The translations under genes and the position numbers were made by a program. From an uncultured Candidatus Cenarchaeum sp. (lineage in GTDB: Archaea; Thermoproteota; Nitrososphaeria; Nitrososphaerales; Nitrosopumilaceae), in the NCBI GenBank assembly GCA_958295735.1, contig OY282369.1, positions 1,906,161-1,970,160 of the forward strand: 64,000 nucleotides of DNA. The letters are read 5' to 3'. Below are positions 3,512 through 62,866 of this stretch, in pieces; position 1 is the stretch's first letter, and each line of letters opens with the position of its first letter. The notes below the pieces were generated by a model, which was given only the letters and a program-made list of their open reading frames with translations, ran no database searches and was not told where the DNA came from.

Positions 3512-4615
3512 TTAGCCGCTGCCGGACTGATCCGTGGGCGGGTCCGCTATGTAGTCCTGCTTGACCGGGTGGCCGGCTTTTTCCTTCCGTTCGTCGGGCG
3601 CTTCTTTGTAGCTGTCGAAGCTCTCCTTCCGTTCGTCGGGCGCTTCTTTGTAGCTGTCGAAGCTCTCCTTCCGTTCGTCGGGCGCTTCTTTGTAGCTGTC
3701 GAAGCTCTCCTTCCGTTCGTCGGGCGCTTCTTTGTAGCTGTCGAAGCTCTCCTTCCGTTCGTCGGGCGCTTCTTTGTAGCTGTCGAAGCTCTCCTTCCGT
3801 TCGTCGGGCGCTTCTTTGTAGCTGTCGAAGCTCTCCTTCCGTTCGTCGGGCGCTTCTTTGTCGCGGCCGGCTTCGCTGTAGGAGCTCTCCTTCCGTTCGT
3901 CGGGCGCTTCTTTGTAGCTGTCGAAGCTCTCCTTCCGTTCGTCGGGCGCTTCTTTGTCGCGGCCGGCTTCGCTGTAGGAGCTCTCCTTCCGTTCGTCGGG
4001 CGCTTCTTTGTAGCTGTCGAAGCTCTCCTTCCGTTCGTCGGGCGCTTCTTTGTAGCTGTCGAAGCTCTCCTTCCGTTCGTCGGGCGCTTCTTTGTAGCTG
4101 TCGAAGCTCTCCTTCCGTTCGTCGGGCGCTTCTTTGTAGCTGTCGAAGCTCTCCTTCCGTTCGTCGGGCGCTTCTTTGTAGCTGTCGAAGCTCTCCTTCC
4201 GTTCGTCGGGCGCTTCTTTGTCGCGGCCGGCTTCGCTGTAGGAGCTCTCCTTCCGTTCGTCGGGCGCTTCTTTGTAGCTGTCGAAGCTCTCCTTCCGTTC
4301 GTCGGGCGCTTCTTTGTCGCGGCCGGCTTCGCTGTAGGAGCTCTCCTTCCGTTCGTCGGGCGCTTCTTTGTCGCGGCCGGCTTCGCTGTAGGAGCTCTCC
4401 TTCCGTTCGTCGGGCGCTTCTTTGTAGCTGTCGAAGCTCTCCTTCCGTTCGTCGGGCGCTTCTTTGTCGCGGCCGGCTTCGCTGTAGGAGCTCTCCTTCC
4501 GTTCGTCGGGCGCTTTCGTGCAACGGCCGGCCTCGCATCGGACCTTTCGCTCTTTGCCTGTCTTGCCATCGCTAAGGTGAAAATGAAGTTGTTTTTTTAC
4601 TATTGAACTTAACAA
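3512..4615 (-). CDS. Tandem-repeat protein of mixed charge; reading frame uncertain
   Basis: The region is a mosaic of 42-nt and 54-nt units. Both lengths are multiples of three and contain no stops, so several frames stay open. The frame annotated here reads KEAPDERKESFDSY (14 aa) and an 18-aa variant with SYSEAGRDKEAP, ending in a unique tail KAGHPVKQDYIADPPTDQSG. It has the highest third-position GC: 11 of 14 codons in the repeat and about 18 of 22 in the tail, against 8 of 14 for the alternative. It needs a TTG start at 4613-4615. The alternative, ATG 4569 to 3547, would give a basic H1-like protein with ATKKRPTNGRRAST repeats. Neither frame matches a family I recognise. A gene is likely present, but which frame is translated is unresolved. 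Confidence 0.45.
   Translation of the reverse strand: MLSSIVKKQLHFHLSDGKTGKERKVRCEAGRCTKAPDERKESSYSEAGRDKEAPDERKESFDSYKEAPDERKESSYSEAGRDKEAPDERKESSYSEAGRDKEAPDERKESFDSYKEAPDERKESSYSEAGRDKEAPDERKESFDSYKEAPDERKESFDSYKEAPDERKESFDSYKEAPDERKESFDSYKEAPDERKESFDSYKEAPDERKESSYSEAGRDKEAPDERKESFDSYKEAPDERKESSYSEAGRDKEAPDERKESFDSYKEAPDERKESFDSYKEAPDERKESFDSYKEAPDERKESFDSYKEAPDERKESFDSYKEAPDERKESFDSYKEAPDERKEKAGHPVKQDYIADPPTDQSGSG
3580..4515. repeat. Interspersed 42-nt and 54-nt tandem repeats
   Basis: Two unit types share a CTCCTTCCGTTCGTCGGGCG core followed by CTTCTTTGT and differ in the linker (TAGCTGTCGAAG against CGCGGCCGGCTTCGCTGTAGG). Copies are virtually identical and arranged irregularly, which points to recent unequal exchange or slippage. 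Confidence 0.9.
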
Positions 4616-4671: not shown

Positions 4672-5173
4672 TTAGGCAACCCTAATTCTGGGCGGCCGGC
4701 GGGAGATCATTACGTGCCGCGCCGGCCCGAACACGAGCCAGAACTCGAAAATGTGCCAGGTTACGCACTGGAAGCGGCAGCCCCGCTTGCCCGTGTCCGC
4801 CGTACGAGGTCAGCACCCCCCACTCCTCAGGCGTGAATCCGGATCGGCGAAGTCGTTTTCACGCCTGTAATTGACGGGTACGTGACCTCATACTGTCCGC
4901 CCCGATGATCTCCAGCGCGAGCCCGGCCGCCGGCGCCACGAACTCGGGCAGCGCCTCGCGCTTCCCCGCAAGCCGGCGCTCCTCCGCATCCGCATCGGCG
5001 GCGCAGTCTGGCGCGCGCCGCGCGCTGCTGCCGACCATGGAAAAGCGCGCCGGGAATGCACTGATCGTGCAGTTCGCGCTTCTCGTCGCGGGGCGGATCT
5101 CCCTGATCGACTTGCGGGCGTTCCCAATCCTCCGGCGCTTCCTGCACGTTTCCGGCGGGTCACTCTCCAGCAT
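4672..5173 (-). pseudogene. Unknown gene interrupted by a 92-bp mobile element
   Basis: From an ATG at 5171-5173 the minus strand has a frame with very high third-position GC that runs into the element at 4802-4893 and stops inside it. The element is flanked by TGTCCGCC on both sides. Removing the element and one copy of that 8-mer leaves 402 nt, an exact 134 codons ending at TAA 4672-4674. The restored C-terminus contains CRFQCVTWHIFEFWLVFGPA. The restored 133-residue protein has no family I recognise; it has a CxxxC pair and an aromatic-rich C-terminal half. Annotating it as one disrupted gene is inferred from frame restoration and codon bias. Confidence 0.6.
4802..4893 (-). mobile_element. 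Element A copy 1 (92-bp inverted-repeat element, MITE-like)
   Basis: The ends are GTACGAGGTCA and TGACCTCATAC, forming a terminal inverted repeat. Inside is a second inverted repeat, AGGCGTGAAT with TTTTCACGCCT. Exact 8-bp direct repeats TGTCCGCC lie at 4794-4801 and 4894-4901, the signature of a target-site duplication. The element has no coding capacity. It interrupts the gene described at 4672-5173. Confidence 0.85.
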
Positions 5174-16903: not shown

Positions 16904-16995
16904 GTATGAGGTCACGTACCCGTCAGTCACAGGCGTGAAAACGCCTTCGCTGATCTAGATTCACGCCTGAATAGTGGGGGTTGCTGACCTCGTAC
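16904..16995 (+). mobile_element. Element A copy 2
   Basis: The 92-bp element begins GTATGAGGTCACGTACCCGT and ends GTTGCTGACCTCGTAC, with internal stem AGGCGTGAAA / ATTCACGCCT. Orientation is opposite to copy 1. Flanking 8-mers (TGTGGGGG and GAGGGGGG) match in six positions, so the duplication is decayed or ambiguous. Confidence 0.75.
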
Positions 16996-23996: not shown

Positions 23997-24425
23997 CTAT
24001 CCGTCCTTCGCGGCCCTGTCCAAGTCGAGGGATGCCGAGTTGATGCAGTAGCGCAGTCCGGTGGGGGCCGGTCCGTCGTCAAAGACGTGGCCCAGATGCG
24101 ATCCGCATCCCGCGCACCTGACCTCCGTCCTGACCATGCCGTGGCTGCGATCCCGCACCATCTCCACGCCGCGCTCCGTCGCCGCCTCCGAAAAGCTGGG
24201 CCACCCGGTGCCGGAGTCGAACTTGGCGCCCGACCTGAACAGCTCCCTGCTGCAGCAGACGCAGCGGTACGCCCCGTCCTCCTTGCAGTCGACGTACCTG
24301 CCGGAGAACGGCGGCTCGGTGGCGCCGTTGACGCACACGTCGTACTGCTCCGGGGTGAGCCTCCTCGCCGCTTCCTCCGGGATGCGCCCGGCCGGCCCCG
24401 TCCCGGCCCCGCCTCCCCCCGTCAT
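23997..24425 (-). CDS. msrB: Peptide methionine-R-sulfoxide reductase MsrB
   Basis: 142 residues. MsrB reduces methionine-R-sulfoxide in proteins. Two CxxC zinc pairs are visible (CVCC and CAGC), the domain begins LTPEQYDVCVNGATEPPFSG, and the catalytic cysteine lies in LRYCINSASL. The motif GTGWPSF and the HGMVRTEV segment are typical. The first 20 residues are Gly-rich and not conserved. No clear TATA at 26 nt, so ATG 24425 is tentative. It stands alone between the nuclease and thyX genes. Confidence 0.93.
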   Translation of the reverse strand: MTGGGGAGTGPAGRIPEEAARRLTPEQYDVCVNGATEPPFSGRYVDCKEDGAYRCVCCSRELFRSGAKFDSGTGWPSFSEAATERGVEMVRDRSHGMVRTEVRCAGCGSHLGHVFDDGPAPTGLRYCINSASLDLDRAAKDG

Positions 24426-24759
24426 CGCCCGCCTCCCCCCGCCTTTTTCCGGCGGTACCGCCCGCGGCATGCGCCCGTCCCGGCCCCCGCCGCGCGGCGC
24501 GCGGGGCAACGCGCGTATTCCGGGCGCGCGCGGAGCCCGGGACCGCCGCGGCGGCTCCCGCGGCGGGGGCCGTCCCGGGATGCGCCTCGCGCCCCTCCGC
24601 GCATCGGGCGCGGCGGGCCCGCGCGCGCGCCGGCCTGCCGCGGAACTTGCGGTCCGGGGAATGGGCGGGGCCCGCGCCGCGCTCCGGGCACCGCGGGCAT
24701 GCCCGCGCTTTCCGCCTTGCCGACGCCACCGTCCCGTGCGGTAGCGCGCCCGCCGGCCA
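24426..24759. other. GC-rich intergenic region, nothing recognised
   Basis: No gene, RNA or element copy recognised between msrB and the 3-prime end of thyX. Confidence 0.45.
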
Positions 24760-26472
24760 CTACGTCCCGCCCCCGCCCCGCCCGCCGGCGGCATCTGCGG
24801 CGGTAACGACAGCGGCAGCGGTAGCAGTGGCGGTAACGACAGCGGCAGCGGTAGCGCCTGCGGCCCTTCTCTTCCGCTCAGCTTTTCCCTCCGAGTCGAG
24901 CCTCTCCAGCGCGCATTCCTTCATGTCTGCGAACCGCATTATCTGGCTGAGCGTCGGGTGCACTCTCTGTATCTCCCTGAACATCTCTTGGGCTGCCCTC
25001 CTGTAGTCGGCATGCCCCTGCGGCATCGTGCGCAGCTCTATCAGGTGCGCTGCCTCCCTCAGGTTGAGCCTCATCATGTACGGATAGTTGTACCCAAAGT
25101 TTACCACGTACTGTGCCCGCGCGGGATCTTCCTTCCTCATACGCTTGAACACCTCCCTGGACGCATCCATGCACTCCTCATACCTGCCTTGCCACCCGAT
25201 CTCCCGCACCTCGGCGGGCACCTCGTAGCCGTGGTCAGCGGTGAGCAGCTGCCTCTGCATGGTGAGCATCCTGTGCCGATGGATGTCCCTGAACATGCCG
25301 AAGTTGCTCAGCATGTCGAACGTGTAGTAGGTCATCTCGAAGGCCCTGGGCGGCCTGTGCCTCCTGTTCCTTCTGGCCGCGGCGCATCTTGTTATTATGT
25401 CCATCTTCTCATCCTTGGACATGCGTCGCACGGCATCAAGCACGGCTCCGTACGCCGCGCCCGCCGACTGGCCGTATGCTAGGGCGGCGACTACCGAGTC
25501 GAGTGCATCTGCCTCTGGATCGTGTTCTTCTAGGCGCACGACGTTGCCGCGCTCCGCGGCCGCGCGCTCCGCGGCCGCGCGCTCCGCGGCCAGGCGCGCT
25601 TGGCGGCGCATCTCGCGCAGGTAGTCTTGCAGTGCCCTGCCGTGTTCCTCGTCGGCCCTCCTTACGAAAGCTCCTATCACCACACCCAACTCCTTTTTGA
25701 TTTGGGCGGCCAGCGTCTTCACCTCTACCAGCTCCGAACCGTACAGGACAGCCAGCAGGTACTCGAAGGCCCTGCCGTTCCCTGTTACTCCAACATTGGT
25801 AAGCGTAGATGCCGGCAGCAACCCCCTTAGTACATCTAGTGCCTTGGCTTTGATGGCTCTGCGGTACGCCGCCTCGGCCATCTTGATGTCGTCCGGGTCA
25901 CGCAGTTCAGCAAACGACTTGGCGCCCCCCTGCACCTCAAACGAGTGTTGCTCTATGGGGTGGCGCTCCTCGACGTACTTTTTCATGGGCTCGATGCAAC
26001 CCGAGTACGCCTCGAACGCCCCGTTGCACGCTTCCACGTACTCGTCGAAAAACCTTGACCCATCCAGGCCGCCGCCGCGGTAGAACATGTACCCGCCGTC
26101 CTTCTTTTTGTCCCACGCCACGTACCTGGTGGACTTTTCCAGGTACGAGAGCCCTATCCTCCTGTCTTGGATGGCCTTCACGGCTATGTTGGAGATCCCC
26201 TCTATGCCTATCTGAGCCTCCCCGAGCTCCGCCACCGAGTCGTCGCCGTACTCCATGAGGACTTTGTCGTAGAACTTTTCGCCTCTTCCCCCGCTCGTGA
26301 ACTCGTCCAGAAAAACGCGCCTCATGCTCTTGCCCGTCCTGCTGTACATGGACATGAGCGCCCCGCGGTCGGCCTGACTCGGCGTCGTTATGGCGAACAC
26401 CGGCCTGTTGGTGTTCGAAAAGTGAGGCCGCAGCCTCTCATTCTCGTCCTCGGTGAACGTCTCGGAAGGCAA
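24760..26472 (-). CDS. thyX: Flavin-dependent thymidylate synthase ThyX, tandem two-domain form
   Basis: 570 residues, more than twice a single-domain ThyX (about 220-250). The N-terminal half has ThyX-like [20 protein letters not shown] and [17 protein letters not shown]; the C-terminal half carries [17 protein letters not shown], the RHRxxS-type signature with Thr in the last position (about residues 398-403), and [19 protein letters not shown]. It converts dUMP to dTMP with FAD and methylene-tetrahydrofolate. An Ala/Glu/Arg helix and an Ala/Thr/Val-rich tail have been added by short tandem repeats. Codon third positions are less GC-rich than in neighbours. The TTG 26472 start follows the upstream small gene by 16 nt. 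Confidence 0.85.
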
Positions 26473-30004: not shown

Positions 30005-30896
30005 GCGGCCCCGCGCAGGGCGCGGGGCGGCGCCGCCCCGGACAAACAGTCGCCTCGGCCACGCGCGCCGCCTGCACGGCCCCGCGCAGGGCGCGGGGCG
30101 GCGCCGCCCCGGACAAACAGTCGACTCGGCCACGCGCGCCGCCTGCACGGCCCCGCGCAGGGCGCGGGGCGGCGCCGCCCCGGACAAACAGTCGACTCGG
30201 CCACGCGCGCCGCCTGCACGGCCCCGCGCAGGGCGCGGGGCGGCGCCGCCCCGGACAAACAGTCGCCTCGGCCACGCGCGCCGCCTGCACGGCCCCGCGC
30301 AGGGCGCGGGGCGGCGCCGCCCCGGACAAACAGTCGCCTCGGCCACGCGCGCCGCCTGCACGGCCCCGCGCAGGGCGCGGGGCGGCGCCGCCCCGGACAA
30401 ACAGTCGACTCGGCCACGCGCGCCGCCTGCACGGCCCCGCGCAGGGCGCGGGGCGGCGCCGCCCCGGACAAACAGTCGACTCGGCCACGCGCGCCGCCTG
30501 CACGGCCCCGCGCAGGGCGCGGGGCGGCGCCGCCCCGGACAAACAGTCGACTCGGCCACGCGCGCCGCCTGCACGGCCCCGCGCAGGGCGCGGGGCGGCG
30601 CCGCCCCGGACAAACAGTCGCCTCGGCCACGCGCGCCGCCTGCACGGCCCCGCGCAGGGCGCGGGGCGGCGCCGCCCCGGACAAACAGTCGACTCGGCCA
30701 CGCGCGCCGCCTGCACGGCCCCGCGCAGGGCGCGGGGCGGCGCCGCCCCGGACAAACAGTCGACTCGGCCACGCGCGCCGCCTGCACGGCCCCGCGCAGG
30801 GCGCGGGGCGGCGCCGCCCCGGACAAACAGTCGACTCGGCCACGCGCGCCGCCTGCACGGCCCCGCGCAGGGCGCGGGGCGGCGCCGCCCCGGACA
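30005..30896. repeat. 71-bp tandem array, about 12.5 copies
   Basis: Each unit contains GGCCCCGCGCAGGGCGCGGG, GCGGCGCCGCCCC, GGACAAACAGTCG and a TCGGCCACGCGCGCC stretch. The only seen difference among copies is one base, CGCCTCGG or CGACTCGG, which follows the order C A A C C A A A C A A A. The period is not a multiple of three, so reading cycles through all frames and the array is unlikely to be coding. Each unit can form strong GC hairpins. It fills the gap between two convergent genes. Confidence 0.93.
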
Positions 30897-31084
30897 AAGC
30901 GAAGCGCCGCGGAGCGGACGCCGGTGTCCCGCGCGGCGGGGCGGCGGCATCGTCACGCGCGGGGCGGCTCTCCCTCGCACCGAATCCGCCGCGCGTTCCG
31001 CTGCCCCGCCGCGCCCGCGGCATCATCCGGGGCAAAGCGCGGCGCCGCCCCCCGCGGCGGAGGGGCGGCGCGCGGCTGGGGGCA

Positions 31085-37749: not shown

Positions 37750-38289
37750 TCAGAATCCGAGGTCAAAGTCAAAGCCGCCTCCCCCGTCCATCCCGGAATC
37801 GACTCCCCCGTCCATCCCGCCCTCGTCGCCGGCGGAGCCAGCATCCGCGCCCTCGGGGATCTGGTCGGCCGGCACATAGTCCGTCATGGAGGAGCCCATC
37901 ATGCTGAACATCATGCTGAACATCATCATGTCCATCACGCCAAAGAACATCATCATGGGAAGCATCCCCCTGAACCCGTCCATCTGATCCTTCATCTTCT
38001 TCTTGTCGCCCGACTTGTAGACCTGCACCATCGTGTCCCAGCTCTGCTGCATCTCGTGGACGCTGCGCTCGAGCTCCTCGTCGCCCTTTTTCGTGGTGTG
38101 CAGCTCCACCTTCTTGCCGAGCCACGTCTTTTTTTCCTCGATCTTGATCAGCCCGCGCTTCTCGAGATCCTCCAGCGCCTTGTCGAGCTCCTCGGGGCTG
38201 ACCTTCGTCGCCTTCTGGATCTTGCCGAACTTTCTGGCTCCCCGCCTTATTGCGCCGAGCACCATGACATCGCTAGGCTCGCAGTCCAC
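37750..38289 (-). CDS. Winged-helix protein with Met-rich segment and Gly/Asp tail
   Basis: 179 residues. Residues 1-65 form a winged helix-turn-helix (VMVLGAIRRGARKFGKIQKA, SPEELDKALEDLEKRGLIKI). A helical middle part is followed by an unusual methionine-rich stretch (GMLPMMMFFGVMDMMMFSMM) that could be membrane-embedded or metal-binding, and a flexible Gly/Asp tail ending DFDLGF. It is probably a transcription regulator tethered to the membrane or oligomerized through the Met segment (inference). GTG 38289 is 26 nt from CCTATAAAATATTC. A C element lies just upstream of that TATA. Confidence 0.72.
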   Translation of the reverse strand: MDCEPSDVMVLGAIRRGARKFGKIQKATKVSPEELDKALEDLEKRGLIKIEEKKTWLGKKVELHTTKKGDEELERSVHEMQQSWDTMVQVYKSGDKKKMKDQMDGFRGMLPMMMFFGVMDMMMFSMMFSMMGSSMTDYVPADQIPEGADAGSAGDEGGMDGGVDSGMDGGGGFDFDLGF

Positions 38290-38333
38290 GCGCCCCTTCC
38301 GGGGCGGCTACCTATAAAATATTCGCCGCGCGG

Positions 38334-38414
38334 CAGTCCATCCCACAACTCGGATTTCAGGCGCGAAAAACCGCCCTGCCGAGGCCGCCGTGGGCGTGAT
38401 TGTGGGATGGACTG
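38334..38414 (+). mobile_element. Element C copy 1, MITE sharing ends with the IS at 14.4-15.8 kb
   Basis: The 81-bp element starts CAGTCCATCCCACAA and ends with its exact reverse complement. The right end read inwards is AGTCCATCCCACAATCACGC; the IS end reads AGTCTATCTCATAATCACGC, differing in three positions. CCGCGCGG flanks both sides (38326-38333 and 38415-38422), an 8-bp duplication equal in length to that of the IS. It has no coding capacity and probably was mobilized by that transposase type. Confidence 0.85.
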
Positions 38415-38422
38415 CCGCGCGG

Positions 38423-38957
38423 CGGCGCGCGGGGCCGCGCACCCGCCAGCCGCCTGCATGAAAACGATCCCGCTGATCCCCGTTGCGCGCCTGCGGGGCG
38501 GGGGCCGCCGGCCCCGCGCGCGGCGGCGCGCGGGGGCCGCGCACCCGCCGGCCTCGGGCGGGCGCCGGCGCCGCGGGCGGGGCGCGGGCGCCCACGGGCT
38601 GCGCAGCGCGGATGCGCCGGCGCCGCCCGCCGCGACGCGCCCCGCGCGCGAGATCCGTAGCATCATGCCGGCGCCGCCCCGCGCGCGCTCGCGTTCCCCG
38701 CGCATCCCGGCGCGCCGCCCCGCGCCGCGCGCCTCCGCCGATCCGGGTTCGCGCCCTGCGGGGGGCCGCCGGCCCCGCGCCGCGCCGGGCACGCGCTTGC
38801 TGCACGCGCCCTGCAGCCCCGGCACGAAATCGTCCGGCGACGCGCCGCCGGGCGCGGGTTTGATCGGGGCCAGGCGCACGCCCCTGATCGCGCACGGCCT
38901 GCGGCACAACACCGGCTTGGGGAACGAGAACAGCCGCGGGCACGGCCGCAAGATGCC
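38423..38957. other. GC-rich intergenic region with diverged A cores
   Basis: A diverged element A is recognisable at 38430-38503 (GCGCACCCGCC, GCATGAAAACGATCCCGCTG, GCGCGCCTGCGG). A shorter fragment with CTCCGCCGATCCGGGTTCGC lies near 38733. No gene is supportable. Confidence 0.5.
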
Positions 38958-39097
38958 GATGCTGCGTATGCGGTCAGCACCCCCCGCGCCGGCCGCGGCG
39001 CCCCGCGCCCAGGCCGGCTCGGGGCGGGGAGCCTCCCCGCCGCCGGCGTCGGTCCCGCGCCGGCCGCGGCGCCCCGCGCCCAGACCCGCCTTGCTGC

Positions 39098-39775
39098 TTA
39101 TTCGGCCGCGCCCTTGCCGCGCGCCCTCCGGGCCAGGACGCGCGCCGCGGAGCCGGGCATGCGCCCCATGGCCGCCGGGCCTCCCTTGATCTGCCCGCTT
39201 GTCTCGCGGAACACCACGGCGCAGCGCAGGGCGCGCCCCGGGGAGCTGTTGGCCGGTTCGACGCGAAGGTGTGCGCCTTCGACGTAGTAAGCAGCGCAGG
39301 GCGCGCCCCGGGGAGCTGTTGGCCGGCTCCGCCTCCGGTTGCTCCGGGAACGCGGGCAGGATCGGCACGGCCCCTTCGATCCCGGCGACGAGCTTTTCCA
39401 GCCGCTCGCCGCCCGAGTCCCGGTACCGGTCCGGCGCGCCTCCCAGCGCCACCTCCGCGGCCCGGCGCAGCCGCGCCGACGGCGCCCCGCCGTCGCGCAG
39501 CAGGACGGCCCCCGCGCACGCGCGCGGCAGGTCCCCGCCCAGCAGGCGCGCGTGCGGATGCGCCCCGCACACGTCCGCGACGTGCCCGGCGCCGCGCGGC
39601 CCGCGGGACCGGCAGTCCAGGCGCTTTCCGCCCGGATCGAACGCCCCGCGCGGGCGGCGGCCGCCCGCGGTCGCGCATCCCCCGTGCCCGCCCGCGTGCG
39701 CGTCGATCGCCCCCCTGCCCCTGCTCCTGTCGCATATGGCGAACTTGCTGGGGCCCGACTGGACGGCGCGGAGGC
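39098..39775 (-). pseudogene. Captured gene fragment inside the 950-bp element
   Basis: The minus strand has a frame with almost only G/C in third positions. It reads SKFAICDRSRGRGAIDAHAG, then GGKRLDCRSRG, AGHVADVCGAHPHARLLGGD and a helical ERLEKLVAGIEGAVPILPAF. No start codon exists before the inverted arm, so the 5-prime end is missing. A 70-bp insertion (36-bp direct repeat at 39221 and 39291 around 34 bp) shifts the frame; skipping it gives FRETSGQIKGGPAAMGRMPG and a stop TAA at 39098-39100. Cys/His spacing suggests a metal-binding protein, but no family is recognised. Confidence 0.5.
39221..39326. repeat. 36-bp direct repeat around a 34-bp hairpin
   Basis: GCAGCGCAGGGCGCGCCCCG continued by GGGAGCTGTTGGCCGG is repeated exactly at 39221-39256 and 39291-39326. 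The 34 bp between contain CGAAGGTGTGCGCCTTCG, a hairpin. The arrangement interrupts the captured reading frame. Confidence 0.8.
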
Positions 39776-39961
39776 TCCCAGCCCCGGGCCGGCCTGGGCG
39801 CGGGGCGCCGCGGCCGGCGGGGGACCGACGCCGGCGGCGCGGAGGCTCCCAGCCCCGGGCCGGCCTGGGCGCGGGGCGCCGCGGCCGGCGGGGGGGGGGG
39901 GTGCCGACCTCGTACGATGCTGCTCACAACATATTTAATACACTCGCGGAACAGCGCGGCA

Positions 39962-40459
39962 ATGTCATCTGACAGCGAGACGCTTGGCCAGATCGCGGCC
40001 AAGGTTGATGGGATCAGGGCAATACTAGACGAGAACAACGGAATGCTGAAGTACAACAAGGCAACGCTCACCGAGAACAACACAATCCTGAAGGAAAACA
40101 ACGAGATGCTGAAGTACAACAAGTCGACTATCGCCGAGAACAACGACATGCTGAAGTACAACAAGTCGACTCTCACCGAGAACAACACCCTCCTGAAGGA
40201 GAACAACGAGATGCTGAAGTACAACAAGGCAACGCTCACCGAGAACAACGACATGCTGAAGTACAACAAGTCGACTCTCACCGAGAACAACACCATCCTG
40301 AAGGAAAACAACGAGATGCTGAAGTACAACAAGTCGACTCTCACCGAGAACAACGACGTGCTGAAGTACAACAAGTCGACTCTCACCGAGAACAACACCA
40401 TCCTGAAGGAAAACAACAGCATGCTCACCGAGAACAACGCACTCCTCAAGAACCGATAG
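39962..40459 (+). CDS. Asn/Lys-rich heptad-repeat coiled-coil protein
   Basis: 165 residues. A short N-terminal helix (SSDSETLGQIAAKVDGIRAI) is followed by about 18 heptads of the forms ENNTILK, ENNEMLK and YNKSTLT with Leu or Ile at a fixed position, predicting a long continuous coiled coil. Base composition is strikingly AT-richer than the surroundings because AAC, AAG and GAG codons dominate. No family recognised; it could be structural or a tether. The ATG 39962 lies 27 nt from CATATTTAATAC. The gene begins 46 nt beyond the end of the 950-bp element, so its promoter abuts that insertion. Confidence 0.75.
   Translation: MSSDSETLGQIAAKVDGIRAILDENNGMLKYNKATLTENNTILKENNEMLKYNKSTIAENNDMLKYNKSTLTENNTLLKENNEMLKYNKATLTENNDMLKYNKSTLTENNTILKENNEMLKYNKSTLTENNDVLKYNKSTLTENNTILKENNSMLTENNALLKNR
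40021..40450 (+). repeat. 21-nt-based repeats encoding heptads
   Basis: Units such as GAGAACAACACCATCCTGAA and AAGTACAACAAGTCGACTCT alternate in blocks. Copies differ by few bases, consistent with expansion in multiples of 21 nt. Confidence 0.85.
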
Positions 40460-40704: not shown

Positions 40705-41064
40705 CTACTCGGTCCTGCGGTAGATGACCTTGAACTCTTCCGCCAGCGTATACGAGAGGTTGAGCAGGTGGCACAGCTCCGTCATCGTTTTCTTGCCGTG
40801 GGCCAGCTGCCGAAGGAAGGTCAGCGCCTTCATGTCTGAATTGGGCTCCAGCGCCGCGTCGCCGTTCCAGGTGCCGAACGCGGCGCTGACCTCCAGGCAG
40901 AAGTTCATGACGAACCCCTCCTTGTCCCTTATGCGGTCCTTCGACTCGTGGACGCTCCAGAATATGCTGTCCTCGAGCAGCTCGAACTCGTTCTTCCTGT
41001 CCACCAAAAGCATCCCGAGCGCCCTGCTCCGCCTCCCCTCGTCGTACTGCTTGAGCATGGCCAA
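40705..41064 (-). CDS. Hypothetical helical protein
   Basis: 119 residues with RKNEFELLEDSIFWSVHESK, GFVMNFCLEVSAAFGTW, and LTFLRQLAHGKKTMTELCHL. No family recognised. The frame starts at TTG 41062-41064, 27 nt from ATTTAAGTG (41087-41095); an ATG two codons later is the alternative. Codon third positions and the promoter support a real gene. Confidence 0.65.
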   Translation of the reverse strand: MAMLKQYDEGRRSRALGMLLVDRKNEFELLEDSIFWSVHESKDRIRDKEGFVMNFCLEVSAAFGTWNGDAALEPNSDMKALTFLRQLAHGKKTMTELCHLLNLSYTLAEEFKVIYRRTE

Positions 41065-41111: not shown

Positions 41112-41203
41112 GTATGGGGCCACGTACCCGCCAGTCACGGGCGTGAAAACGACTTTGCTGATCCGGATTCGCGCCCGAGGAGTGGGGGGTGCTGACCTCA
41201 CAC
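41112..41203 (+). mobile_element. Element A copy 3
   Basis: The 92-bp element starts GTATGGGGCCACGTACCCGC and ends GTGCTGACCTCACAC. The internal stem is GGGCGTGAAA with TTCGCGCCC; the unmatched T/G would be a G-U pair in RNA. GCGCCCGC flanks it exactly (41104-41111 and 41204-41211). A second, diverged A core follows at 41226-41297 (GCGCGGATCCGGATCGGCGA, GCGCCCTCGCGACTGC). The element sits just upstream of the TATA for the gene ending at 40705. Confidence 0.87.
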
Positions 41204-47934: not shown

Positions 47935-48023
47935 GTATGATGTCAGCACCCCCAACTCAGGCGTGAATCTGGATCAGCGAAGTCGTTTTCACGCCTGTGA
48001 CTGACGGGTACGTGACCTCATAC
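47935..48023 (-). mobile_element. Element A copy 4
   Basis: The 89-bp copy starts GTATGATGTCAGCACCCCCA and ends GACGGGTACGTGACCTCATAC (shown from GACGGG). GGCGGGCG lies on both sides (47927-47934 and 48024-48031). It ends 18 nt before the TATA-like CTTTAATT of the DNA ligase gene and could influence that promoter. Confidence 0.87.
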
Positions 48024-60220: not shown

Positions 60221-62866
60221 TCACACCTGTTTCCGGCCCGTGGGGAACCACGGGCACGACGGGCGGGCGGGGCTCTTGGCGGGAGGGGGCGCCTCGGCCG
60301 CCGGAGGGGGCGCCTCGGCCGCCGGAGGGGGCGCCTCGGCCGCCGGAGGGGGCGCCTCGGCCGCCGGAGGGGGCGCCTCGGCCGCCGGAGGGGGCGCCTC
60401 GGCCGCCGGAGGGGGCGCCTCGGCCGCCGGAGGGGGCGCCTCGGCCGCCGGAGGGGGCGCCTCGGCCGCCGGAGGGGGCGCCTCGGCCGCCGGAGGGGGC
60501 GCCTCGGCCGCCGGAGGGGGCGCCTCGGCCGCCGGAGGGGGCGCCTCGGCCGCCGGAGGGGGCGCCTCGGCCGCCGGAGGGGGCGCCTCGGCCGCCGGAG
60601 GGGGCGCCTCGGCCGCCGGAGGGGGCGCCTCGGCCGCCGGAGGGGGCGCCTCGGCCGCCGGAGGGGGCGCCTCGGCCGCCGGAGGGGGCGCCTCGGCCGC
60701 CGGAGGGGGCGCCTCGGCCGCCGGAGGGGGCGCCTCGGCCGCCGGAGGGGGCGCCTCGGCCGCCGGAGGGGGCGCCTCGGCCGCCGGAGGGGGCGCCTCG
60801 GCCGCCGGAGGGGGCGCCTCGGCCGCCGGAGGGGGCGCCTCGGCCGCCGGAGGGGGCGCCTCGGCCGCCGGAGGGGGCGCCTCGGCCGCCGGAGGGGGCG
60901 CCTCGGCCGCCGGAGGGGGCGCCTCGGCCGCCGGAGGGGGCGCCTCGGCCGCCGGAGGGGGCGCCTCGGCCGCCGGAGGGGGCGCCTCGGCCGCCGGAGG
61001 GGGCGCCTCGGCCGCCGGAGGGGGCGCCTCGGTCGCCGGAGGGGGCGCCTCGGCCGCCGGAGGGGGCGCCTCGGCCGCCGGAGGGGGCGCCTCGGCCGCC
61101 GGAGGGGGCGCCTCGGCCGCCGGAGGGGGCGCCTCGGCCGCCGGAGGGGGCGCCTCGGCCGCCGGAGGGGGCGCCTCGGCCGCCGGAGGGGGCGCCTCGG
61201 CCGCCGGAGGGGGCGCCTCGGCCGCCGGAGGGGGCGCCTCGGCCGCCGGAGGGGGCGCCTCGGCCGCCGGAGGGGGCGCCTCGGCCGCCGGAGGGGGCGC
61301 CTCGGCCGCCGGAGGGGGCGCCTCGGCCGCCGGAGGGGGCGCCTCGGCCGCCGGAGGGGGCGCCTCGGCCGCCGGAGGGGGCGCCTCGGCCGCCGGAGGG
61401 GGCGCCTCGGCCGCCGGAGGGGGCGCCTCGGCCGCCGGAGGGGGCGCCTCGGCCGCCGGAGGGGGCGCCTCGGCCGCCGGAGGGGGCGCCTCGGCCGCCG
61501 GAGGGGGCGCCTCGGCCGCCGGAGGGGGCGCCTCGGCCGCCGGAGGGGGCGCCTCGGCCGCCGGAGGGGGCGCCTCGGCCGCCGGAGGGGGCGCCTCGGC
61601 CGCCGGAGGGGGCGCCTCGGCCGCCGGAGGGGGCGCCTCGGCCGCCGGAGGGGGCGCCTCGGCCGCCGGAGGGGGCGCCTCGGCCGCCGGAGGGGGCGCC
61701 TCGGCCGCCGGAGGGGGCGCCTCGGCCGCCGGAGGGGGCGCCTCGGCCGCCGGAGGGGGCGCCTCGGCCGCCGGAGGGGGCGCCTCGGCCGCCGGAGGGG
61801 GCGCCTCGGCCGCCGGAGGGGGCGCCTCGGCCGCCGGAGGGGGCGCCTCGGCCGCCGGAGGGGGCGCCTCGGCCGCCGGAGGGGGCGCCTCGGCCGCCGG
61901 AGGGGGCGCCTCGGCCGCCGGAGGGGGCGCCTCGGCCGCCGGAGGGGGCGCCTCGGCCGCCGGAGGGGGCGCCTCGGCCGCCGGAGGGGGCGCCTCGGCC
62001 GCCGGAGGGGGCGCCTCGGCCGCCGGAGGGGGCGCCTCGGCCGCCGGAGGGGGCGCCTCGGCCGCCGGAGGGGGCGCCTCGGCCGCCGGAGGGGGCGCCT
62101 CGGCCGCCGGAGGGGGCGCCTCGGCCGCCGGAGGGGGCGCCTCGGCCGCCGGAGGGGGCGCCTCGGCCGCCGGAGGGGGCGCCTCGGCCGCCGGAGGGGG
62201 CGCCTCGGCCGCCGGAGGGGGCGCCTCGGCCGCCGGAGGGGGCGCCTCGGCCGCCGGAGGGGGCGCCTCGGCCGCCGGAGGGGGCGCCTCGGCCGCCGGA
62301 GGGGGCGCCTCGGCCGCCGGAGGGGGCGCCTCGGCCGCCGGAGGGGGCGCCTCGGCCGCCGGAGGGGGCGCCTCGGCCGCCGGAGGGGGCGCCTCGGCCG
62401 CCGGAGGGGGCGCCTCGGCCGCCGGAAAGGCGGCCGGGAGGCCGGTTGCCGGCCCCCTCGCCTCCCTTTCCGCCGCATGGACGTTCTCCGCTCCCCCCAT
62501 GCGCAGCTGCATGGCGCGTATTCGCGCCATCGCGTCCTCGGCGGAGACCACGATCTCGTTGATGTCGCCGTCCAGCCTCCCGATGTCTTCAACGGAGCGG
62601 GTTATCACGTCCACGAACTCCTGCAGCAGGTCGCGCACGTCCTCCTTGTCCTCGTGCTTTGAGAGGACGAACCAGGCCATGTGCAGCACGCTGTACGTGT
62701 CCTGCAGCTCCTCGGCGTCCATGCCCGCCACCACCTTCCTGTACGCGCCGTCAGCGTCCTTTTCCCGCCCCTCCCGCAACCGCTCCTTCACCAGCGCCGA
62801 GAGTCCCGCTATGCGCGCCGCCTGCCGGCGGCGCTCCCTGCCGCCCCTCCCCCCCAGTATGCTCAA
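60221..62866 (-). CDS. Cdv operon protein with about 102 copies of a 7-residue Pro/Ala/Glu repeat
   Basis: 881 residues. Residues 1-150 are helical and non-repetitive ([60 protein letters not shown]); no family recognised. Residues from about 150 to 860 are PPPAAEA repeated about 102 times, encoded by a 21-nt unit with only one seen base change (Ala to Thr near 61031). The last 19 residues include a Cys-Pro-Trp and end TGRKQV. The TTG start overlaps the stop of the ESCRT-III-like gene (TTGA) and cdvC follows after 81 bp. Pro-rich peptides are known to bind MIT domains, so the repeat may bind CdvC (inference). Confidence 0.75.
60287..62425 (-). repeat. 21-nt tandem array, about 102 copies
   Basis: The unit GGGGGCGCCTCGGCCGCCGG plus A repeats over about 2.14 kb. 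All copies look identical except one C-to-T change at about 61031. The length and identity indicate recent expansion; copy number may vary among cells or be misjudged in assembly. Confidence 0.95.

What the first reader, a model, noticed from the sequence alone, without database searches (positions are those of the whole stretch)
38958..39923. A 950-bp element with A-type ends, 8-bp duplication and captured gene
The ends match element A, GATGCTGC is duplicated exactly, about 110-bp arms are inverted, and a gene fragment without a start sits inside. This looks like a gene-capturing non-autonomous transposon, a type rarely reported in archaea.
Basis: partly seen in the sequence, partly recalled or inferred. 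Interest (0 to 1): 0.85.

Follow-up and report, generated by a model that had tools for sequence, protein, structure and literature searches.

The report
Decayed, internally deleted IS66-type insertion element
This is a dead, shortened copy of a jumping element whose intact copies sit elsewhere in the same archaeal genome; the "captured gene" inside is the rotting second half of the element's own transposase, so no gene was captured.

Summary
A 950-bp element (38966-39915) has inverted ends, ~111-nt arms (94% complementary) and an exact 8-bp target duplication (GATGCTGC, 38958-38965 / 39916-39923), and holds a gene fragment without a start. The capture interpretation fails. The interior is the C-terminal 44% (residues 259-465 of 467) of the element's own IS66-family transposase. 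Three full-length copies (1.89-1.91 kb, same ends, own 8-bp duplications, intact transposase) lie elsewhere in the genome. The window copy lost ~0.86 kb inside (N-terminus and first catalytic Asp), gained a 70-bp frameshifting duplication, and both other catalytic residues are now Gly. Its deletion junction is unique in the genome, so there is no sign that it moved after shortening. Other elements with these arms are full-length, decayed or arms only; none found holds foreign cargo. "Element A" is a 92-bp MITE family sharing ~20 bp of one end. The genus-mate has other genes in this interval and no IS. It is a new member of a known kind. One surprising by-product: IS fossils in this ~70% GC archaeon decay strongly towards GC (window copy 45 AT-to-GC vs 1 GC-to-AT at polarised sites), while fossils of the same IS group in an AT-rich relative decay towards AT.

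The parts
38958..38965 (+). left target-site duplication GATGCTGC
38966..39915 (+). the 950-bp internally deleted IS66-type element
38966..38985 (+). left terminal inverted repeat GTATGCGGTCAGCACCCCCC
38980..39090 (+). left long arm (111 nt, 94% complementary to the right arm; contains 71-bp-spaced subrepeats)
39089..39271 (-). transposase remnant, residues 405-465 (last part of the ORF, second frame)
39221..39290 (+). 70-bp insertion/duplication: 39-nt repeat (39221-39259 and 39291-39329) plus 31-nt filler 39260-39290 unique in the genome; causes a frameshift
39267..39779 (-). transposase remnant, residues 259-429; D297 and E416 both changed to Gly, D248 and the N-terminal half absent
39763..39788 (.). 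junction of the ~0.86-kb internal deletion (full-element positions ~876-899 joined to the right arm, ~1759); unique in the genome
39764..39915 (-). right long arm: two 71-bp-spaced repeats (39764-39823, 39835-39894) and the terminal repeat
39896..39915 (-). right terminal inverted repeat (inverted: GTACGAGGTCGGCACCCCCC)
39916..39923 (+). right target-site duplication GATGCTGC
4802..4893 (+). element A: 92-bp MITE of the related family, TSD TGTCCGCC
16904..16995 (-). 92-bp MITE copy, TSD decayed
41112..41203 (-). 92-bp MITE copy, TSD GCGCCCGC on the + strand
47935..48023 (+). 89-bp MITE copy, TSD GGCGGGCG

Best explanation
A full-length (~1.9 kb) IS66-family element of the single-ORF (ISBst12-like) type inserted here and made the 8-bp duplication GATGCTGC. 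The copy later lost ~0.86 kb inside (start, N-terminal half and first catalytic Asp of its transposase), gained a 70-bp duplication with filler, and drifted under a strongly GC-ward substitution process that also destroyed the other two catalytic residues. It makes no working transposase. With both ends retained it could in principle be moved in trans by the three intact copies, but nothing shows that this happened. Shown: identity with the IS, ends, duplications, deletion, lost catalytic residues, unique junction. Inferred: order of events, trans-mobilisability, inertness today.
For: Three intact copies with 8-bp TSDs (GCGGCGCG, GGCGCGTT, ACTGATGT) and 467-aa transposases. NCBIfam IS66 equivalog at 184.3 bits against a cut-off of 180; Pfam DDE_Tnp_IS66 at 98.2 against 23.1. 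The window copy is collinear with them: 1-89, 198-438, 409-899, gap, 1759-1889. Protein identity is 61% over residues 259-429 and 57% over 405-465. D297G, E416G and loss of D248. Differences fall on codon positions 39/50/16, as in a gene no longer under selection. No other place in the genome spans the junction.
Against: No relative with the empty site at nucleotide level was available, so the insertion rests on the TSD plus gene-level synteny. The order of insertion and deletion is inferred. The window fragment alone matches no Pfam model; its identity rests on direct comparison with the intact copies.
Confidence: 0.96

Rival explanations
1. The element was already shortened when it inserted here, as a non-autonomous derivative moved in trans by the intact copies.
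For: Both ends and an exact TSD are kept although the transposase is dead. Arms-only derivatives with TSDs of 0-1 mismatch exist (L070 231 bp, L095 88 bp) and the MITE family exists, which suggests that short forms are mobilised in trans in this genome.
Against: The deletion junction occurs only once in the genome, so no sister copy of this deletion form is seen.
Confidence: 0.2
2. Gene-capturing (passenger-carrying) non-autonomous transposon.
For: An internal ORF fragment without a start lies between long inverted arms.
Against: The fragment is the IS's own transposase, collinear with the full-length element. No element found with these arms carries other genes.
Confidence: 0.01
3. The truncated transposase is kept as a regulator (an inhibitor of the intact transposase).
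For: The first remnant keeps an open frame without stops over 171 codons.
Against: There is no start, a 70-bp frameshift, and substitutions concentrate on codon positions 1 and 2. An open frame is uninformative at ~80% GC. The N-terminal half of the transposase is absent.
Confidence: 0.01

Closest known systems
IS66 family, ISBst12 group (e.g. ISDge4 of Deinococcus geothermalis, PMC12898284)
   Same: Single-ORF transposase (449 aa in ISDge4, 467 aa here), imperfect TIRs sharing GT......TCAGCA (ISDge4 GTGACTACTCAGCA; here GTATGAGGTCAGCA), 8-bp direct repeats.
   Different: The copies here have ~110-150-nt GC-rich arms built of 71-bp-spaced subrepeats; the window copy lacks most of the transposase.
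ISH10 (IS66 family) of Halobacterium salinarum
   Same: Archaeal IS66 relative, 27% protein identity over 96% of the query; candidate ends GTACGTGTTTAG.. with an 8-bp TSD CCGATCTA.
   Different: Long subrepeat arms were not sought in it; different host phylum; intact.
IS66-type element in a low-GC relative of the same family (G016, L071)
   Same: Transposase 44-45% identical, TIR GTATGAGGTCAGC, TSD TACTTTTT, 1418 bp.
   Different: No room for long GC-rich arms (ORF 1447-2766 in an element at 1364-2781); the host stretch is 35% GC.
MITEs (element A, 92 bp, ~40 places in this genome)
   Same: Non-autonomous, 8-bp TSD, ends shared with the IS over ~20 bp on one side.
   Different: The window element is a single-copy internal deletion derivative of 950 bp, not an amplified miniature family.

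Membership tests
IS66 family (parent element) | IS66-type DDE transposase (TnpC) | tested here: met
   NF033517 above its curated cut-off; PF03050 above its gathering score; D248, D297, E416 invariant in A1
IS66 family (parent element) | 8-bp target-site duplication | tested here: met
   Three full copies and the window copy, all with 0 mismatches
IS66 family (parent element) | Terminal inverted repeats beginning with GT | tested here: met
   GTATGAGGTCAGCACC at the ends of the full copies; same start in ISDge4 and in the ISH10 candidate ends
ISBst12 group of IS66 | Single transposase ORF, no tnpA/tnpB | tested here: met
   The full copy is 1889 bp with one 467-aa ORF filling the space between the arms; no separate search for TnpA/TnpB models was run
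Autonomous IS66 element (window copy) | Intact catalytic triad and start | tested here: not met
   D248 deleted, D297G, E416G, frameshift, no start
Gene-capturing / passenger-carrying transposon | Internal gene not belonging to the element | tested here: not met
   The interior is the IS66 transposase
Gene-capturing / passenger-carrying transposon | Same ends with different cargo elsewhere | tested here: not met
   The long-armed elements found are covered 100% by the full IS; the search covered only stretches fetched around hits
MITE family | Multiple copies of the same short non-coding form | tested here: not met
   The junction is unique in the genome

The most novel reading that the evidence does not exclude
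The fossil and its sister fossils record a neutral substitution process in this archaeon that drives unconstrained DNA to ~0.9 GC. At outgroup-polarised sites, fossils changed AT-to-GC at 472 of 905 AT sites and GC-to-AT at 68 of 1051 GC sites. Fossils of the same IS group in an AT-rich family member show the reverse (21 of 1486 against 78 of 1512). If so, GC-biased gene conversion or a GC-biased mutation/repair process is unusually strong here.
Probability: 0.55. Interest if true: 0.6.

Novelty: new member of a known kind. Interest (0 to 1): 0.25.

Why it matters
The finding is ordinary: an IS remnant, correctly delimited from raw sequence but misread as gene capture. It shows how an autonomous element's own decayed transposase can look like cargo in a very GC-rich genome, where open frames are everywhere. 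Its side value is that a set of IS fossils, with intact copies and an outgroup, gives a direct reading of the direction of substitution in unconstrained DNA of a ~70% GC archaeon, contrary to the GC-to-AT mutation bias reported as the rule in bacteria (cited in PMC6429543).

Tried and rejected
Gene capture: rejected because the interior equals the transposase. Syntenic chromosomal gene: rejected, since the genus-mate has three other genes and no IS in the interval. Amplified deletion form: rejected, since the junction is unique. The 31-nt filler as another mobile element: a single occurrence in the genome with up to 3 mismatches, so unexplained filler. A first scan of named genomes with the single transposase found nothing; a second, with the alignment, found only distant relatives at 26-29%. 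A consensus-polarised GC test among fossils was dropped because the consensus is itself made of GC-shifted fossils. Searches (MITE script; outgroup script) failed and were redone.

Full report
Observation. The element runs from 38966 to 39915 (950 bp) and is flanked by GATGCTGC at 38958-38965 and 39916-39923. Its ends are GTATGCGGTCAGCACC and, inverted, GTACGAGGTCGGCACC. The arms 38980-39090 and 39787-39897 are 94% complementary over 111 nt. The best inverted-repeat score is 90, against at most 20 in 40 resamples of the same composition, and the chance of an 8-bp match in the local flanks is about 6e-4. The arms contain subrepeats spaced 71 bp apart.

What the interior is. A search of the window's own genome (one contig of 3.17 Mb; the window is C1:1906161-1970160) found the interior in many places. 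Three of them are full-length elements of 1889, 1889 and 1911 bp. They have the same ends and their own perfect 8-bp duplications (GCGGCGCG, GGCGCGTT, ACTGATGT), and carry essentially identical intact 467-aa transposases. The protein passes NCBI's IS66 equivalog cut-off and Pfam DDE_Tnp_IS66.

The window copy is collinear with the full element: positions 1-89, 198-438, then a 70-bp duplication/insertion with a 31-nt filler, 409-899, a deletion to 1759, and 1759-1889. The "captured gene fragment" is therefore residues 259-465 of the element's own transposase. The missing part holds the start, the N-terminal half and the first catalytic Asp (D248). The second and third catalytic residues (D297, E416; invariant in alignment A1) are both Gly in the fossil. 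That these three residues are the catalytic triad is inferred from the conserved IDE, TDG and NNxxER contexts. The remnant differs from the intact copies at codon positions 1, 2 and 3 in the ratio 39:50:16, as expected for a gene no longer under selection.

Genome context. In the only genus-mate held (2,045,086 bp, the size recalled for Cenarchaeum symbiosum A), the gene on the left (window 37750-38289) and the genes on the right (40705-41064, cysS) lie in the same order. By eye, three unrelated genes lie between them, and there is no IS. The IS is thus not part of a conserved chromosomal gene. In the window its right end lies just upstream of a TATA-like sequence (39930-39941) and the start codon (39962) of a heptad-repeat gene; any effect on that gene is untested.

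Other elements with these ends. About a dozen further decayed transposase fragments are scattered in the genome. One MITE copy (C1 ~207.9 kb) contains a second nested MITE-like sequence. No element with the long arms carries a foreign gene in the stretches examined. The window's deletion junction is unique in the genome. The MITE shares about 20 bp of one end with the IS; whether this transposase moves it is inferred, not tested.

Family. An IS66-type element of a relative in the same family (44-45% identical transposase) has the same terminal GTATGAGGTCAGC and an 8-bp duplication, which ties these ends to this transposase group. ISDge4, of the ISBst12 group, has one ORF, TIRs GTGACTACTCAGCA / GTAACTGCTCAGCA and an 8-bp repeat (PMC12898284). 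ISH10 of Halobacterium is an annotated archaeal relative. A 2019 survey of mobile elements in Thaumarchaeota does not use the word IS66 in its main text and lists no IS in C. symbiosum A (PMC6563490). Its family heat map could not be read, so I claim no first report. The same survey says that passenger-carrying composite transposons had not been detected in archaea, so a real gene capture would have been notable; this is not one.

By-product: direction of decay. At codon positions 1-2 of residues identical between the intact transposase and the outgroup (L071), the window copy shows 45 AT-to-GC and 1 GC-to-AT changes; twelve fossils together show 472 of 905 AT sites and 68 of 1051 GC sites changed. 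The same test on nine fossils in the AT-rich relative G016 gives 21 of 1486 and 78 of 1512, the opposite direction. Fourfold-degenerate sites in four neighbouring genes are 0.89-0.96 GC, but 0.73 in the heptad-repeat gene, and non-coding stretches are 0.72-0.84, broadly in line with a GC-ward process. Caveats: most AT-to-GC changes are shared by several fossils, so they are either parallel or partly inherited from common dead ancestors, and counts are not independent events. Most GC-to-AT changes are singletons (30 of 39). The G016 fossils are much younger (87-99% identical to the intact copy), so the two sets differ in age. The non-coding MITE copies show only a weak GC-ward excess (135 vs 91; implied equilibrium GC 0.55-0.77 depending on the frequency cut). 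Gene conversion between repeats, general mutation bias and selection are not separated.

Verdict. The description is confirmed; gene capture is rejected. The element is a decayed internal-deletion derivative of a resident IS66-family (ISBst12-like) insertion sequence: a new member of a known kind, of low interest in itself.

Noticed in passing
window 38966-39915 and fossils L054, L057-L059, L061, L064-L069: IS66 fossils decay strongly towards GC (472/905 AT sites vs 68/1051 GC sites changed at polarised positions), the reverse of the same IS group in the AT-rich relative G016.
   Followed up: partly
window 38326-38425: About 95-bp MITE-like element with ~25-nt inverted ends CGCCGCGCGGCAGTCCATCCCACAA ... 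TTGTGGGATGGACTGCCGCGCGGCG.
   Followed up: no
G000:C1, e.g. 177544-178626, 24111-25190 (L106, L107): Other IS66-type groups in the genome, including ~20 transposase copies with a 593-aa open frame; two compared copies are 99.5% identical, with ends GTACACACTTACCTCCC and GC-rich terminal repeats: apparently a recent expansion.
   Followed up: partly
L090 6957-7210 (G000:C1 ~207.96 kb): A 92-bp MITE interrupted by a second MITE-like palindrome (CTATAGCGCCGTCAAAAAGT ... ACTTTTTGACGGCGCTATAG).
   Followed up: partly
window 39260-39290: 31-nt filler with a short hairpin between two copies of a 39-nt stretch of the transposase remnant; found nowhere else in the genome.
   Followed up: partly
window 39962-40459: Gene made of 21-bp (7-residue) tandem repeats (ENNxMLKYNKxTLT), probably coiled-coil, with no match in the orthologous interval of the genus-mate.
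   Followed up: partly
window 60282-62426, 30006-30898, 3582-4536, 1026-2906: Very long, nearly perfect tandem arrays: 102 copies of 21 bp, 12.6 copies of 71 bp, 42/96-bp arrays and collagen-like repeats.
   Followed up: no
G001:C1:629405-630589 (L072): Open 552-aa IS66-type transposase in the genome whose length matches that recalled for C. symbiosum A, for which a survey reported no IS.
   Followed up: no
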